This document shows, in pieces, positions 3,126-55,224 of a stretch of 59,307 nucleotides of DNA. The position numbers were made by a program, and so were the translations under genes. The notes beneath the pieces were generated by a model, which made no database searches, was not told the DNA's origin, and was given only the letters and a program-made list of their open reading frames with translations. Position 1 is the first letter of the stretch; every line of letters starts with the position of its first letter. Origin of the DNA: an uncultured Massilimicrobiota sp. (GTDB lineage Bacteria > Bacillota_I > Bacilli_A > Erysipelotrichales > Coprobacillaceae); NCBI GenBank assembly GCA_944325245.1, contig CALUZM010000008.1, positions 1-59,307 of the forward strand, given 5' to 3'.

Positions 3126-4649
3126 CTAACCTTCCTTATGAATCCTTAAGAAAACAGCAACATAATCTTTCATAACATCTTTCATTTTTTGTGCTAATTC
3201 ATCACTAATACTCTTTTGTGTATGAATGCCTTCAATGATTTCTGGATGTTTAGCTTCCATCTCACGATACAATTCATCAACAAATTGTTTCACCTTGGAA
3301 ACTGGAATAGTTTTTGTGAATCCATATTTCAAGGCAAATAATGAAATAACCTGTTCTTCTACACTGCGTGGTGAATATTGAGGCTGTTTGAGAATTTCAC
3401 GTACTTTTTCACCATGATCTAAAGTTGCCTGCGTTGTTGCATCAAGGTCACTACCAAATTGAGCAAAAGCCTGCATTTCACTATATTGTGCTAATTCCAG
3501 TTTTAATGAACTTGAAACTTGTTTCATAGCCTTTAATTGTGCTGATGAACCTACACGACTGACTGATAATCCAGTATCAATAGCAGGTCTAAATCCTGAG
3601 TTAAATAAATCCTGCTGTAAGAAAATCTGTCCATCTGTAATAGAAATCACATTTGTTGGAATATATGCTGAAATATCTCCAGCTTGTGTTTCAATAATTG
3701 GTAATGCTGTAATAGAGCCCCCACCATGTTCTTCGTTTAAACGACAAGCTCTTTCCAATAATCTTGAATGTAAGTAGAAAACATCTCCAGGATAAGCTTC
3801 TCTTCCTGGTGGTCTTTTAAGTAATAATGATAATGTACGATAAGCCACGGCATGCTTAGATAAATCATCATAAACAATCAAAACATCTTTTCCTTCATCC
3901 AACCATTCTTCAGCCATAGCACATCCTGCATATGGTGCAATATATTGAACTGGTGCCAATTCACTGGCTCCAGCATCCACAACAGTTGTATATTCCATAG
4001 CGCCACCTTGACGCAATTTTTCTACAATTTGGGCAACAGTTGAATTCTTTTGTCCAATCGCTACATAGATACAATAAATATTTTGTCCTTTTTGATTTAA
4101 AATTGTATCAATCGCAATCGCTGTCTTTCCTGTCTGACGATCACCAATAATCAATTCACGTTGTCCTCTACCAATTGGAATAATCGCATCAATACATGTA
4201 ATTCCTGTCTGTAGTGGCTGATCTACAGATTTTCTCGTCATAACTCCAGGTGCAATCTTTTCAATAGGACGTGTATGCTGATAAACAATTTCCCCTTGTC
4301 CATCAATAGGTTGTCCTAATGGATTGACAACACGTCCTAATAAACCATCACCAACCGGAACTTCAATAATTCTTCCTGTCTTTTTGACTTCGTCTCCTTC
4401 TTTAATTGTTCCCTCATCACCAAGCAAAACAGCTCCTACAGCATCTTCTTCAAGGTTCATAACCATTCCATAGACATCACCTGGGAACAATAACAATTCA
4501 CCTAACATTGCATTATCGAGTCCATGAATAAGTGTAACACCATCTCCAACTGTCATGACTGTTCCTACATCTTTAGATTCAATTTGATCTGCAAAATGCT
4601 TGATTTGTTCTTTAATTAATGCACTAATCTCATCTGGTCTTAAATCCAC
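3126..4649 (-). CDS. atpA: ATP synthase F1 subunit alpha
   Basis: Non-catalytic nucleotide-binding subunit, 507 aa, standard length. The P-loop is GDRQTGKT near 169-176. The family signature [17 protein letters not shown] is present, as is the alpha-type N-terminus ([13 protein letters not shown]). It alternates with beta in the F1 head, and its N-terminus contacts delta and the peripheral stalk. It lies between atpH (8 bp upstream) and atpG in the conserved order. No truncation or odd residue was seen. Confidence 0.98.
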
Positions 4650-19870: not shown

Positions 19871-19886
19871 AAGTCATTCTTTATTG
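19848..19886. terminator. Bidirectional terminator between LysR gene and lysA
   Basis: AAAGAATGAACT pairs imperfectly with AGTCATTCTTT. T/A runs flank both sides. The hairpin overlaps the LysR stop. Confidence 0.7.
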
Positions 19887-21191
19887 ATAGTCCTCTTGTA
19901 CATCATAAGCAACCAAATCTTCAAATGTCTGTCTTCTAATAACTAATTTTGATTTCCCTTGATATGTAAACACCACAGCAGGTTTAGGAATTTGATTATA
20001 ATTGGATGACATTGAATAATGATAAGCTCCTGTAGAAAATTGAGCAAATATATCACCAGGTTCTGGATAAGGCAACATGATTTCCTTGACTACAATATCT
20101 GCTGATTCACAAATTTTTCCAGCAACTGTAACTTTTGTATCACGGCGTTCATAAGCTTTATTAACAATGACACCATCATATTGTGCATCATATAATGCTG
20201 TTCTGATATTATCAGTCATTCCTCCATCTACACTCATATATGTACGAACTTCTGGTATATCTTTCACTGCTCCCACAGTATAAAGTGTAATACCAGCATT
20301 TCCAACAACATAACGTCCTGGTTCAACCAAAACCATTGGCATTTCCCAACCACGACGATCATACCCATCTTTAATAATATTCATGATTTCTGATGTAATT
20401 GTTTCAAATTCTAGTGGCTCATCTTTTTTTGTATACGCAATACCATATCCTCCACCAGCATTAATTTTCTTGACCATAACACCTAATTCATCATATATTT
20501 CATAGGCAAAATGAACAAATCGATGCATAGCACTTATATATGCATATAAATCAAAAACCTGTGAACCAATATGACAATGAATTCCTTCAAATTCAATATG
20601 TGAAGAATCTACAATCTGTTGAATGGCTTTTAGATAAATACCATTTCTGGCACTAAATCCAAATTTTGTATCTTTATGTCCTGTTTGAATATAGCCATGA
20701 CTTCCAGCTTTAATTTCTGGTACAACACGGACTGTAGCATAAATAGTCTTATCATACTGTGTTGCTATTTTTTCAACCAGTTCAATTTCATAAAAATTAT
20801 CAATGACAAAGTGATCAACATCATGTGCAATAGCATAATCTATTTCAGAAGGAAGCTTGTTATTTCCATGGAAATAAATTTTATGCGGATCAAAGCCAGC
20901 TTTTAAAGCAATAGAGATTTCTCCAGCACTGACACAATCAATACCCACTCCATATTCACTAGCAATTCGATAGATTTCTAAACAGCTAAATGATTTTGAA
21001 GCGAATAAAGGTAAAACATTATCATATTTATCTAAAAATTTTGTTTTTAATTCTTCAAACTGATGTCTAATATGTCCCTCACTCATAATATAAAGTGGTG
21101 TTCCATATTTTTTGACAAGATCCATTGCATTCACATCATCTATATATAAACTACGATCTCTAATTTGTGCAAATTGTGTTTGTAATACCAT
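19881..21191 (-). CDS. lysA: Diaminopimelate decarboxylase
   Basis: PLP enzyme making lysine from meso-diaminopimelate, the last step of lysine synthesis. 436 aa. Visible are the PLP lysine in FASKSFSCLEI (about 64), GIHCHIGSQ, the GGGYG glycine loop (NAGGGYGIAY), and the substrate-binding YVSVDGGMTDN-like segment (here YMSVDGGMTDN) and CESADI with the catalytic Cys. It is the last gene of the riboswitch-led operon, 15 bp after dapB. The lysine riboswitch upstream should lower its expression when lysine is plentiful. Confidence 0.97.
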   Translation of the reverse strand: MVLQTQFAQIRDRSLYIDDVNAMDLVKKYGTPLYIMSEGHIRHQFEELKTKFLDKYDNVLPLFASKSFSCLEIYRIASEYGVGIDCVSAGEISIALKAGFDPHKIYFHGNNKLPSEIDYAIAHDVDHFVIDNFYEIELVEKIATQYDKTIYATVRVVPEIKAGSHGYIQTGHKDTKFGFSARNGIYLKAIQQIVDSSHIEFEGIHCHIGSQVFDLYAYISAMHRFVHFAYEIYDELGVMVKKINAGGGYGIAYTKKDEPLEFETITSEIMNIIKDGYDRRGWEMPMVLVEPGRYVVGNAGITLYTVGAVKDIPEVRTYMSVDGGMTDNIRTALYDAQYDGVIVNKAYERRDTKVTVAGKICESADIVVKEIMLPYPEPGDIFAQFSTGAYHYSMSSNYNQIPKPAVVFTYQGKSKLVIRRQTFEDLVAYDVQEDYQ

Positions 21192-21206: not shown

Positions 21207-21950
21207 TTAATATAAATTCTTTAAGCTAAATAAACCATTTTCCTTATCAGCAATTTTCAAGCACGCTGAAATAGCTCCTTGAACAAAGACTTCTTTAGAT
21301 AAAGCTGTATGTTTCACTTCAATAATTTCATCATGTCCCGCAAATAAAACAGTATGTTCCCCAAAAATTGTTCCAGCACGGACAGATTGAATACCAACTT
21401 CATTTCTTTCACGTTTATGATGGACTTTAGAACGATCATAAACTTCTTTAGTTTCCTCAATATCTTCATGAATCACATCATATAAAAGTTTAGCTGTTCC
21501 ACTAGGTGCATCTATTTTTTGATTATGATGTTTTTCAATAATTTCAATATCATATCCATTTTGATAAAATTCTTTCGCAACTTCTTTGACAATCTTTGTC
21601 AGCATAGAGACACCAAAAGATGTATTATATGATTGAAAAATAGGAATTTGAGATGAAGCTTCTTCAATATGTAAGATTTGTTGTTCATTGTATCCTGTTG
21701 TCGCTAGAACCAAGGCACAATGATTTTTCACACCAAATTTTAAAATATCACTTAATAAATCAGGATGTGAAAAATCAATAATAGCATCTATTTTTTCTTT
21801 CACTTCATTGATTGAAGTGTACATTTTTTCGTCAATTTTCGCATCAAAAACAGGCGAAACAACGCCTATTAAATTCATTTGTTCGTTGTCTCTAACGGCT
21901 TGAGCAACCTTCTTACCCATTAAGCCGTAACCACATACCAATACATTCAT
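21207..21950 (-). CDS. dapB: 4-hydroxy-tetrahydrodipicolinate reductase
   Basis: Reduces hydroxy-tetrahydrodipicolinate with NAD(P)H in the diaminopimelate pathway. 247 aa. The N-terminal Rossmann motif is VCGYGLMGKKV (about 4-14). The catalytic segment EIIEKHHNQKIDAPSGTA (about 140-157) matches the DapB signature E-x-H-H-x-x-K-x-D-A-P-S-G-T-A. Two bases separate it from dapA. It is slightly shorter than the E. coli enzyme but complete. Function and pathway are secure. Confidence 0.96.
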   Translation of the reverse strand: MNVLVCGYGLMGKKVAQAVRDNEQMNLIGVVSPVFDAKIDEKMYTSINEVKEKIDAIIDFSHPDLLSDILKFGVKNHCALVLATTGYNEQQILHIEEASSQIPIFQSYNTSFGVSMLTKIVKEVAKEFYQNGYDIEIIEKHHNQKIDAPSGTAKLLYDVIHEDIEETKEVYDRSKVHHKRERNEVGIQSVRAGTIFGEHTVLFAGHDEIIEVKHTALSKEVFVQGAISACLKIADKENGLFSLKNLY

Positions 21951-21952
21951 TT

Positions 21953-22849
21953 TTAATAACCCTTCTTTTCAAATTTTTCCATTGCTTCAAATAATAATTT
22001 CTTATTTGCTTCAGTTGTTGGAATCAATGGTCTTCTCACCATTTCTCCACAGACACCCATATGATGAAGTGCAGCTTTTGGCATAATTGGATTGACATCT
22101 ATAAATAAATATTTACTGATATCATTGAAATCATATGCCATTTCTTTAGCTAGTTCCATATCACCATGTAAAACAGCCTGAGCAAATTTTTCAGTTTCTC
22201 TTGGATAAAGATTAGATAAAACAGAAATAACACCTTTTCCTCCAGCTGCAATAAAAGGTAAAATATTATCATCGCAACCACTATACATATCAAAATCTAA
22301 ATCTCTTGTTTGTGTTAAAACATCCATAGCATAAGCAATATTATCTGTAGCATCTTTCATAGCTTTAATATTTTTATGCTTAGCCAGTTCAACAACTGTA
22401 TCTACAGTAATATTCATTCCTGTACGACCTGGTACATTATAAAGAATCATAGGAATATCTACACGATCAGCAATATAAGTATAATGTTCAATTAAACCTC
22501 TTTGACTTGTTTTATTATAATATGGTGTGACAACCAAAATAGCATCAGCACCAACTTCTTTAGCAAACTTGGCTTTCTTTAATGCTGTTTCGGTATCATT
22601 TGATCCCGCTCCAGCAATGACTTTGACTCCTGTTCCTTTTGTCATTTCCATGACAATCTTTGTCAATTCAAATTCTTCATCAATATGAATTGTTGGTGTT
22701 TCTCCAGTTGTTCCATTGACTAAAAGAGCTTGAACACCTCCATCAATCATTCTTTGAACCTGTCTTTTAAAACCTTCATAATCAATACTTCCATCATCTA
22801 ACATTGGTAATACAAGTGCCACTGCACTTCCTTCAAAAATTGGTTCCAT
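21953..22849 (-). CDS. dapA: 4-hydroxy-tetrahydrodipicolinate synthase
   Basis: Condenses pyruvate with aspartate semialdehyde, the first committed step to diaminopimelate and lysine. 298 aa TIM barrel. The pyruvate-binding GTTGETPT (about 46-53), the catalytic Tyr in YNVPGRTGMN (about 137-146) and the Schiff-base lysine in IKAMKDATDN (about 165) are all present. It stands second in the operon, 10 bp after the ACT-domain gene. Feedback by lysine is possible, but transcription is clearly set by the lysine riboswitch. Confidence 0.97.
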   Translation of the reverse strand: MEPIFEGSAVALVLPMLDDGSIDYEGFKRQVQRMIDGGVQALLVNGTTGETPTIHIDEEFELTKIVMEMTKGTGVKVIAGAGSNDTETALKKAKFAKEVGADAILVVTPYYNKTSQRGLIEHYTYIADRVDIPMILYNVPGRTGMNITVDTVVELAKHKNIKAMKDATDNIAYAMDVLTQTRDLDFDMYSGCDDNILPFIAAGGKGVISVLSNLYPRETEKFAQAVLHGDMELAKEMAYDFNDISKYLFIDVNPIMPKAALHHMGVCGEMVRRPLIPTTEANKKLLFEAMEKFEKKGY

Positions 22850-22859
22850 TTTCTTCCTC

Positions 22860-23315
22860 CTATTTATATTCTTTTTGAATTTCTGTTAAAGCAAGACTTT
22901 CATATTCTAAAGGTATAACACATGAAATTGAAACTTCAGAAGTTGTAACCTGTAATAAAGGAATTTGATTTTTTCCTAATACCGTAAAAAAATGTGCCGC
23001 AACACCAACTTCTTCTTTCATTTCATCACTTTCTACCTTAATTTTTACAACTTGTCGATTTTGATAAATCTGAATTCTTGGATGTTTTTCTTTAACCAAA
23101 GATAATGCCTGATCTAGATTTTGTTGATCATCTTGACTACATGTAAAATCAATGCGCATTTCATCTTCTAACATCACTTCTGAAATCATATCAATATTGA
23201 CATTCATTGAAGAAATCGTTTGAAAGATATCTCCTACAAATAATGAATTTTTTTCTACATTCATTAATTTCACTTGAATAATATGATGATCTGATTCAAT
23301 TAAATTTGTTTTCAT
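22860..23315 (-). CDS. Stand-alone tandem ACT-domain protein, aspartokinase regulatory-subunit-like
   Basis: 151 aa. It looks like the C-terminal regulatory part of aspartokinase without the kinase domain. The first ACT repeat is about 14-75 (NVNIDMISEV). The second (about 85-150) contains GVAAHFFTVLGKNQIPLLQV and TTSEVSISCVI, which matches the 'STSEIKISCVI' lysine-binding stretch of aspartokinases. First gene of the operon behind the lysine riboswitch. I choose the ATG at 23315, with AAGAAGGTG six bases upstream; an in-frame GTG at 23324 is part of that site. It may bind lysine and act on an aspartokinase encoded elsewhere; this is inference. Confidence 0.75.
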   Translation of the reverse strand: MKTNLIESDHHIIQVKLMNVEKNSLFVGDIFQTISSMNVNIDMISEVMLEDEMRIDFTCSQDDQQNLDQALSLVKEKHPRIQIYQNRQVVKIKVESDEMKEEVGVAAHFFTVLGKNQIPLLQVTTSEVSISCVIPLEYESLALTEIQKEYK

Positions 23316-23327
23316 TTCTTTCACCTT

Positions 23328-23364
23328 CTTTAAAAAATAAAAAATTGCAATGGTACCATTGCAA
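23328..23364 (-). terminator. Riboswitch expression-platform terminator
   Basis: A perfect TTGCAATGGTACCATTGCAA palindrome (23345-23364) followed on minus by T6-A-T6 lies between the lysine aptamer and the first gene. With lysine bound this hairpin should form and stop transcription. Confidence 0.85.
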
Positions 23365-23385
23365 TAATAAATATTTTTTTATTAA

Positions 23386-23545
23386 GGCAATAGCACACCA
23401 CTTTATCTTAAAGTGACAGTGATATAGATATTCTCTATACCCCCAGGCAATAATTACATGCAAATAATTATCCCTTCGGCAATCGCTCCCCCTTCTTTTT
23501 AGTTGCATCTATTATAAAAGAATTCTTAACTCTTGCACCTCTATC
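23386..23545 (-). promoter_or_regulatory. Lysine riboswitch (L-box)
   Basis: Read on minus the leader shows the conserved L-box blocks in order: GATAGAGGTGCAAGA (start), AAGGGGGAGCGATTGCCGAAG, a long A/T stem closed by TTATTTGC and GTAATTA..GCCTGGGGGTA, then CACTGTCA, and a closing TGCTATT that pairs with the opening GATAG. The layout matches Bacillus lysC leaders. An intrinsic terminator follows. It controls the ACT-dapA-dapB-lysA operon. Confidence 0.93.
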
Positions 23546-23553
23546 TTTTTTTA

Positions 23554-52349: not shown

Positions 52350-52558
52350 ATCAAATCGTTGCATTGGATAAGTAAATGTGAAATCATGATAGAGAGCTGA
52401 TGGTTGGTGTAAATCAGTATGAGGAAACATTGAAATCTACCAATAAGAGAAGCTAATCACTTCCGGTTGAACCGTTATCTCATTAAAGTTATCAGTTTGA
52501 TAAGAAATAGGGTGGCACCACGATGAATTCGTCCCTTGTGAAAGGTGCTTTTTATTTT
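52350..52558 (+). promoter_or_regulatory. T-box riboswitch for serS, UCU (Ser) specifier
   Basis: Stem I has AGAGAGCTGATGG, the AG-bulge-like parts and GAGGAAACATTGAAA, with the specifier TCT at 52436-52438 followed by ACC, which is a serine codon. The T-box AGGGTGGCACCACG (52509-52522) has A where the usual consensus has G (ACCGCG). A competing terminator hairpin with GGTGC and T5 ends the leader. Uncharged tRNA-Ser should allow serS transcription. Confidence 0.92.
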
Positions 52559-55132: not shown

Positions 55133-55139
55133 AGATTTT

Positions 55140-55224
55140 GCCATTACAATAGGCGGCTTCGAACCATGTCAGGACCGGAAGGTAGCAGCATTAAGAATGT
55201 CCGTTTATGTGTAGTGGCTTTTTT
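55140..55224 (+). ncRNA. ffs: Signal recognition particle RNA, small (4.5S) type
   Basis: The apical-loop signature GTCAGGACCGGAAGGTAGCA is intact, with the GGAA tetraloop and the symmetric loop that binds Ffh. GCCATTACA (55140-55148) pairs with TGTAGTGGC (55210-55218) to close the hairpin, and T6 follows. No Alu domain, so it is the short type. It lies upstream of tadA and dnaX as in other Firmicutes. Confidence 0.93.

What the first reader, a model, noticed from the sequence alone, without database searches (positions are those of the whole stretch)
22860..23545. Lysine riboswitch controls a free-standing aspartokinase-type ACT protein
The first gene behind the L-box is a 151-aa tandem-ACT protein that matches the aspartokinase regulatory end but lacks a kinase domain; dapA, dapB and lysA follow. 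In Bacillus the beta subunit comes from an internal start in lysC. A separate gene would allow feedback sensing to be set apart from catalysis.
Basis: partly seen in the sequence, partly recalled or inferred. Interest (0 to 1): 0.5.

Follow-up and report, generated by a model that had tools for sequence, protein, structure and literature searches.

The report
Aspartokinase sensor without its kinase
In a family of gut bacteria the lysine-controlled gene for the enzyme aspartokinase appears to have lost its catalytic half, and the leftover half, the part that senses amino acids, has been kept as a protein of its own, probably to regulate another enzyme.

Summary
Observation confirmed. A lysine riboswitch (23551-23383, minus strand) with terminator/antiterminator leads an operon whose first gene (23315-22860, 151 aa) is an aspartokinase (AK) regulatory ACT pair without kinase domain; dapA, dapB, lysA follow. 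The predicted fold matches AK regulatory parts over its whole length (Z 19.6). It is no local accident: 37 of 43 same-family genomes hold it intact, each behind a riboswitch and before dapA, with group-mean dN/dS 0.04-0.16. One relative (G013) has a full-length riboswitch-controlled lysC in the same place, with an internal ribosome site near where the stand-alone protein begins. Best reading: a lysC beta subunit that outlived its alpha subunit. Stand-alone ACT genes also sit in riboswitch operons of Eubacterium aggregans, G454, G833 and three loci read from seven further genomes. In Eubacteriaceae, lysC followed by a separate ACT gene keeps the internal start in 4 of 15, lysC alone in 17 of 17 (one gain, so not independent cases). 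Most likely the protein acts in trans on a remaining AK. That binding, and lysine as ligand, are inferred; effector-pocket residues have drifted.

The parts
23383..23551 (-). lysine riboswitch (L-box) aptamer, RF00168
   Evidence: cmscan 91.7 bits, E 6.6e-23
23344..23365 (-). intrinsic terminator hairpin ATTGCAATGGTACCATTGCAAT followed by a T run; its 5' arm can instead pair with the 3' end of the aptamer (antiterminator), i.e. a transcription OFF switch
   Evidence: terminator scan; RNA fold of 23395-23330 gives the alternative stem, -14.4 kcal/mol, z -3.2; the switching itself is inferred
23322..23331 (-). ribosome-binding site AAAGAAGGTG of the ACT gene
   Evidence: read from the sequence
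22860..23315 (-). free-standing aspartokinase-type ACT pair, 151 aa (LysC beta-like subunit), no kinase domain
21953..22849 (-). dapA, 4-hydroxy-tetrahydrodipicolinate synthase
   Evidence: TIGR00674 279 bits, over cut-off
21207..21950 (-). dapB, 4-hydroxy-tetrahydrodipicolinate reductase
   Evidence: TIGR00036 181 bits, over cut-off
19881..21191 (-). lysA, diaminopimelate decarboxylase
   Evidence: TIGR01048 443 bits, over cut-off

Best explanation
The gene is the beta half of an ancestral, lysine-riboswitch-controlled lysC. That lysC made a full alpha chain and, from an internal start, a beta chain consisting only of the ACT pair. In the ancestor of most of this family (Massilimicrobiota, Thomasclavelia, Sharpea, Kandleria, Faecalibacillus and relatives) the kinase part was lost, and the beta reading frame came to lie directly behind the riboswitch. 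The protein has been kept by purifying selection. Inferred: it works in trans as a regulatory subunit that joins another aspartokinase through ACT-ACT contacts, most likely the YclM-type AK found in all carriers, possibly also the hom-adjacent AK where present, and ties that enzyme's activity to lysine or a related end product. If the riboswitch is an OFF switch, as its layout suggests, the sensor subunit is made when lysine is scarce, together with dapA-dapB-lysA. Shown: riboswitch, operon, domain content, predicted fold, descent from LysC-type AKs, conservation, full-length counterpart in G013. Not shown: partner, ligand, effect on activity.
For: 37 of 43 same-family genomes (16 genera) carry it intact, dapA behind it in 37 of 37, riboswitch before it in 37 of 37. 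Group-mean dN/dS 0.04-0.16, highest single pair 0.19. Tree: 24 family stand-alone rows form one clade (100/96) within full-length LysC-type AKs (99/90 with Staphylococcaceae, Peptostreptococcus and G013 LysC; midpoint root). G013, same family: riboswitch - full-length lysC (397 aa) - dapA - dapB - lysA; its dapA joins the family's dapA (SH-aLRT 91, not starred, long branch); its lysC has an internal ATG 161 codons from the end with a ribosome site (-6.3 kcal). AF2 model from 28 of the 37 sequences, pLDDT 94.3, Z 19.6 over 150 residues to 3ab2_K and the AK-beta chain 3s1t_A. A ribosome site plus ATG/GTG in the linker occurs in 32 of 40 full-length LysC-like AKs; seven shifted windows give 0-11 of 40. 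Eubacteriaceae: lysC followed by a separate ACT gene keeps that start in 4 of 15, lysC alone in 17 of 17. Stand-alone ACT genes lie in L-box operons of E. aggregans (L094), G454 (L115), G833 (L309) and 3 of 3 loci read out of seven genomes. G659 has one aspartokinase, its other three AA_kinases being ProB, ArgB and UMP kinase; the six like it and G833 look the same by frame sizes.
Against: No binding data and no complex prediction. Both AKs of this genome have their own ACT domains, and the ACT parts of the family's YclM-type AKs look intact in the 30 read, so nothing requires an extra subunit; in G004 the YclM-type AK is in two frames (assembly error not excluded). The hom-adjacent AK type has its own linker start (6 of 7). 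Effector-pocket positions fixed in 25 of 25 full-length LysC have drifted: the CgAK Q298 position is S or E in 11 of 15 group A stand-alone proteins (this one E), and the E382 position is K in 12 of 13 of group B; the ligand may have changed or one pocket been lost. The Eubacteriaceae pattern rests on one gain of the separate gene (one independent pair), and four genomes with it keep the internal start. G013's place beside the stand-alone clade in the ACT tree is weak (91/26). Distance correlations are significant with all three tested proteins and strongest with dapA.
Confidence: 0.5

Rival explanations
1. The protein is a homodimeric amino-acid sensor that acts on another lysine-pathway enzyme, DapA first of all, not on an aspartokinase.
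For: Next to dapA in 37 of 37 family genomes and in dapA-dapB operons in the other cases read. It persists in genomes with different AK types. Partial distance correlation of the ACT protein is highest with dapA (r 0.55-0.67, against 0.36-0.55 and 0.36-0.39 for the two AKs; 21 genomes). The window's DapA lacks residues known for lysine inhibition: by motif position, H56 and E84 (named in PMC10464499, passage read) read E and T here (numbering recalled), so outside regulation of DapA would make sense.
Against: Position beside dapA is also the inherited position of lysC (G013; lysC-asd-dapA operons listed in PMC5584792, passages read), and genes of one operon share history, which by itself raises the correlation. 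AK beta chains are known to bind AK; none is known to me to bind DapA (recalled).
Confidence: 0.25
2. Two-flavour isozymes by subunit exchange: the lysine-type beta-like chain competes with a kinase's own beta chain (or ACT partner), so one kinase gene yields a threonine-type and a lysine-type enzyme according to riboswitch state.
For: Seven genomes plus G833 have one AK-sized AA_kinase gene with its own strong internal start (-12 to -13.5 kcal, 8 of 8) besides a stand-alone ACT gene; the riboswitch was seen in the four loci read.
Against: ACT pairs of AKs like those (L225, L226, L227) fall outside the group that holds LysC and the stand-alone proteins; cross-binding is untested. In the window's family the AK found in all carriers is the YclM type, which has no clear linker start (1 of 30, weak).
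Confidence: 0.15
3. Functionless remnant of lysC that has not yet decayed.
For: One genome of 43 (G042) has a frame-shifted copy, though that assembly has 7% contamination.
Against: Intact in 37 genomes of 16 genera with dN/dS far below 1; 15 invariant positions among 28 aligned sequences.
Confidence: 0.05
4. The reading frame serves only to couple translation of dapA to the riboswitch; its protein is irrelevant.
For: First gene, 10 bp before dapA.
Against: Selection acts on the amino acids; in other lineages the gene comes after dapB.
Confidence: 0.02

Closest known systems
Beta subunit of alpha2beta2 aspartokinase (C. glutamicum LysC-beta, 2dtj/3aaw; M. tuberculosis AK-beta, 3s1t)
   Same: Same tandem-ACT fold over the whole length (Z 19.6 to 3s1t_A, 19.0 to 2dtj_B) and about the same extent as the chain made from the internal start of lysC.
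   Different: There the beta chain is encoded inside the kinase gene (PMC8690038, passage read); here there is no kinase part, the gene is free and the cognate alpha chain is gone.
IlvH/IlvN, small ACT subunit of acetohydroxyacid synthase
   Same: Free-standing ACT regulatory subunit apart from its catalytic subunit; distant fold match (2f1f, Z 11.3).
   Different: Different enzyme and sequence family; IlvH is encoded beside its catalytic gene (recalled), this one is not.
Synechocystis aspartokinase with a doubled ACT pair (3l76)
   Same: Best PDB sequence match (E 1.4e-15), both of its ACT pairs matched; an extra ACT pair added to an AK, there in one chain.
   Different: Fused, not free; its gene control was not looked at here.
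Lysine-riboswitch operons as surveyed by Mukherjee et al. 2017 (PMC5584792; passages read)
   Same: Same riboswitch class and dapA-dapB-type operons, several with lysC in them.
   Different: In the passages read no stand-alone ACT gene is listed, e.g. asd-dapA-dapB alone for Caldicellulosiruptor; 'aspartokinase', 'aspartate kinase', 'regulatory domain' and 'Erysipel' have no occurrence in its main text.

Membership tests
Lysine riboswitch (RF00168) | score over the curated threshold, full model length | tested here: met
   91.7 bits against 30, model 1-182 of 182
Lysine riboswitch (RF00168) | lysine-dependent switching | not testable with these tools
   terminator and antiterminator alternatives are present; switching not measured
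Aspartate kinase (NCBIfam/TIGR00656 etc.) | whole-protein score over cut-off, kinase domain present | tested here: not met
   best 90.5 bits against a cut-off of 586; only positions 259-399 matched
AK beta subunit (LysC-beta) | tandem ACT fold of AK type | tested here: met
   predicted model: Z 19.6, rmsd 1.8, 150 aligned residues to 3ab2_K and 3s1t_A
AK beta subunit (LysC-beta) | descent from LysC regulatory part | tested here: met
   nested within LysC-type AKs, 99/90 and 95/87, root at the midpoint
AK beta subunit (LysC-beta) | encoded in frame inside a kinase gene | tested here: not met
   no kinase sequence upstream
AK beta subunit (LysC-beta) | forms a complex with an AK alpha chain | not testable with these tools
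   only single chains can be modelled here
AK beta subunit (LysC-beta) | effector-binding residues kept | tested here: inconclusive
   S381 position kept in 28 of 28; Q298 position drifted in group A, E382 position changed in group B

The most novel reading that the evidence does not exclude
Aspartokinase regulation in these bacteria is modular: a free, pathway-specific ACT subunit, made only when its operon's riboswitch is on, docks onto whichever aspartokinase the cell has and sets which amino acid that enzyme obeys. The same solution arose more than once, from lysine-type ACT pairs in lysine-riboswitch operons.
Probability: 0.35. Interest if true: 0.75.

Novelty: new variant of a known kind. 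Interest (0 to 1): 0.55.

Why it matters
Aspartokinase is the entry point of the aspartate family of amino acids and a main target of industrial strain design. A natural, free regulatory subunit under riboswitch control would show how catalysis and feedback sensing can be separated and exchanged. It would also give a direct way to ask what the internally started beta chain of lysC is good for, since here it has outlived its kinase. No such gene was seen in the passages read of a large riboswitch-operon survey (PMC5584792), and none of the nine paper searches made surfaced a title or abstract describing it; most subscription papers are not held.

Tried and rejected
ACT-less kinase elsewhere in this genome: PF00696 found five proteins. 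Two are aspartokinases with ACT domains (L003, L005), L004 is UMP kinase, L001 and L002 are NAG kinase and glutamate 5-kinase by reading and neighbours. The short AKs (350-368 aa frames) of Thomasclavelia, G013 and G005 looked like ACT-less candidates. The only one read (G005, L194) sits between a dpaB-like gene (named from recall) and dapA, probably a dipicolinate operon, and was set aside.

Hom-adjacent AK type as the sole partner: rejected as a family-wide answer because 12 of 38 carriers lack it; two of those 12 genomes are under 85% complete, ten at least 96%.

One common origin of all stand-alone genes: rejected at p-AU 0.022, but the family clade plus L115/L122 as one clade is not rejected (p 0.279). 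So probably at least two origins, not a firm number.

Loss of own ACT function in the YclM-type AKs: not seen by eye in 30 family sequences against 8 others; this was not a formal test.

Partner by correlated distances (21 genomes): the ACT protein correlates with dapA (partial r 0.55-0.67), the YclM-type AK (0.36-0.55) and the hom-adjacent AK (0.36-0.39); it does not single out an AK, and leans to dapA, its operon neighbour.

Internal-start scan: threshold and window were chosen after seeing the first results. One shifted control window (+40 codons) reached 11 of 40 and, for the hom-adjacent type, one (-70) reached 5 of 7. The 40 include six AKs of another clade (L158, L225-L227, L312, L319) and leave out L313-L318, similar to L312. 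With TTG allowed, one further Eubacteriaceae gene with a separate ACT gene (L279) reaches -6.2.

Rows left out: alignment A1 holds 28 of the 37 intact sequences; the tree uses 24 of those 28 and 44 of 48 AK rows (two of the 44 are the same gene). The dapA tree (quick method, long-branch warnings) lacks L026, L131 and L134.

Fold search: only the second-look library pdb_via was run; no viral or plain Foldseek search.

Full report
Observation. On the minus strand of the window a lysine riboswitch (RF00168, 23551-23383, 91.7 bits) is followed by a terminator hairpin with a T run (23365-23344), whose 5' arm can instead pair with the end of the aptamer (-14.4 kcal/mol, z -3.2). This is the usual layout of a transcription OFF switch; the switching is inferred. 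The first gene starts at the ATG at 23315 behind AAAGAAGGTG and ends at 22860, 151 codons. dapA, dapB and lysA follow with gaps of 10, 2 and 15 bp; all score over the NCBIfam cut-offs.

The protein. It matches only the regulatory end of aspartokinase (AK) models and ACT families of Pfam. Its AlphaFold2 model from 28 family sequences has mean pLDDT 94.3 and aligns over 150 residues with AK regulatory parts, Z 19.6, rmsd 1.8 (3ab2_K; the AK-beta chain 3s1t_A). By sequence the best solved relative is the Synechocystis AK, which carries a doubled ACT pair (E 1.4e-15).

The genome's own aspartokinases. Five AA_kinase proteins were found. Two are aspartokinases: a 409-aa enzyme beside hom (L003, over the NF005154 cut-off) and a 449-aa YclM-type enzyme (L005, over the NF006540 cut-off). 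Both carry ACT domains over the Pfam cut-off behind the kinase. The others are UMP kinase and, by reading, NAG kinase and glutamate 5-kinase. The idea that an ACT-less aspartokinase here depends on this protein is ruled out.

The family. Nearest named relatives are Massilimicrobiota strains (86% identity; the window's own record may be left out of that list). Of 43 same-family genomes, 37 hold an intact stand-alone gene, one (G042) a frame-shifted copy, one (G013) a full-length AK in the same place, and four (G005, G014, G016, G034) lack this dapA as well, so the operon is missing or unassembled. The 37 intact copies all have the riboswitch and dapA behind them. Mean dN/dS is 0.04-0.16 in the six genus groups with usable pairs, one to about two and a half times that of dapA in the five groups where both were computed. 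The protein is under selection.

Origin. In a tree of 71 ACT pairs the 24 family stand-alone proteins form one clade (100/96) inside full-length LysC-type AKs; the enclosing group (99/90) holds Staphylococcaceae, Peptostreptococcus and G013 LysC (midpoint root). G013 has riboswitch - lysC (397 aa) - dapA - dapB - lysA, and its dapA joins the family's dapA (SH-aLRT 91, long branch). Loss of the kinase part after G013 branched off is the simplest reading. G013's place beside the stand-alone clade in the ACT tree itself is weakly supported (91/26).

The internal start. Some AKs are alpha2beta2 with in-frame overlapping genes (PMC8690038, passages read). A ribosome site plus ATG/GTG 150-175 codons from the end was found in 32 of 40 LysC-like AKs; seven shifted windows gave 0 to 11 of 40. 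In G013 it lies 161 codons from the end. The stand-alone proteins of the family, as taken, have 149-159 residues (some starts are my choice). The stand-alone gene thus corresponds to the beta chain.

Parallels. In the family of Eubacterium aggregans (40 genomes) 16 have a separate ACT gene directly behind lysC. Fifteen of these lysC genes could be read: the internal start is kept in 4 (near-identical species) and gone in 11. In 17 of 17 lysC genes without the separate gene it is present, always 156 codons from the end. In the other 7 genomes no separate gene was seen and no complete lysC of this type was read. The separate gene was gained once on the tree and the internal start changed at least three times, so this is suggestive rather than statistically independent evidence. 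Elsewhere, L-box - (asd) - dapA - dapB - ACT operons occur in G454 (L115), G833 (L309) and three of three loci read out of seven genomes that hold a related gene (asd named by reading). G659, one of the seven, has exactly one aspartokinase, its other AA_kinases being ProB, ArgB and UMP kinase; the other six and G833 show the same frame sizes, and in G833 ArgB and ProB were confirmed. All eight AKs have a strong internal start. One survey gives asd-dapA-dapB as the riboswitch operon of Caldicellulosiruptor (PMC5584792, passages read); the seven genomes may belong there, but they are unnamed here.

Which partner. The hom-adjacent AK type is missing from 12 of the 38 carriers (10 of the 12 genomes at least 96% complete). 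The YclM-type AK was found in all 38, though in G004 it lies in two overlapping frames. If the partner is an AK, it must be able to be the YclM type, a different AK clade from the one the ACT pair came from. This is the weakest link. DapA as partner is the main rival: distance correlation is strongest with dapA, though operon neighbours share history. DapA's lysine-site positions, by motif and recalled numbering, read E56 and T84 in the window instead of H and E, so it is probably not lysine-sensitive by itself.

Effector pocket. Mapped on C. glutamicum AK through the alignments, the S381 position is kept in 28 of 28 family stand-alone proteins. The Q298 position, Q in 25 of 25 full-length LysC, is S or E in 11 of 15 group A proteins including this one (E). 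The E382 position, E in 25 of 25, is K in 12 of 13 group B proteins. A table in PMC10464499 (passage read) lists Q298 and E382 among positions whose mutation alters feedback. Lysine binding is thus plausible, not secure.

Verdict. Trans regulation of another AK is the most likely mechanism (about 0.5), unproven. None of nine full-text searches surfaced a description of such a gene in the titles and abstracts listed, a weak negative.

Noticed in passing
L310:3238-3792 (G488:C49): A stand-alone threonine-type AK ACT pair directly behind thrC-thrB-like genes (named from recall), no lysine riboswitch found in the locus; the two other genomes of its order that were searched have full-length AK frames at their best match.
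   Followed up: partly
L094/L272-L285 (family of Eubacterium aggregans): lysC followed within 18 bp by a second, separate ACT-pair gene of about 160 aa; 11 of 15 of these lysC genes have lost the internal start.
   Followed up: yes
L194:473-1525 (G005) and frames of 350-368 aa in Thomasclavelia and G013: Short aspartokinases matching only the kinase part of the query; the one read lies between a dpaB-like gene and dapA, probably for dipicolinate.
   Followed up: partly
L347:593-1926 (G004): YclM-type AK in two overlapping frames, a 300-aa kinase part and a 144-aa ACT part; assembly error or a real split.
   Followed up: partly
L119:3707-3870 and 3970-4133: Two lysine riboswitches in tandem before lysC of Clostridium mobile.
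   Followed up: no
L261:1254-2602 (G454): YclM-type AK split into two adjacent frames upstream of the L-box-dapA-dapB-ACT operon; assembly error or a broken gene.
   Followed up: no
window 52350-52539: T-box leader before a seryl-tRNA-synthetase-like gene (named by reading); ordinary.
   Followed up: no
window 55137-55224: Bacterial small SRP RNA, ordinary.
   Followed up: no
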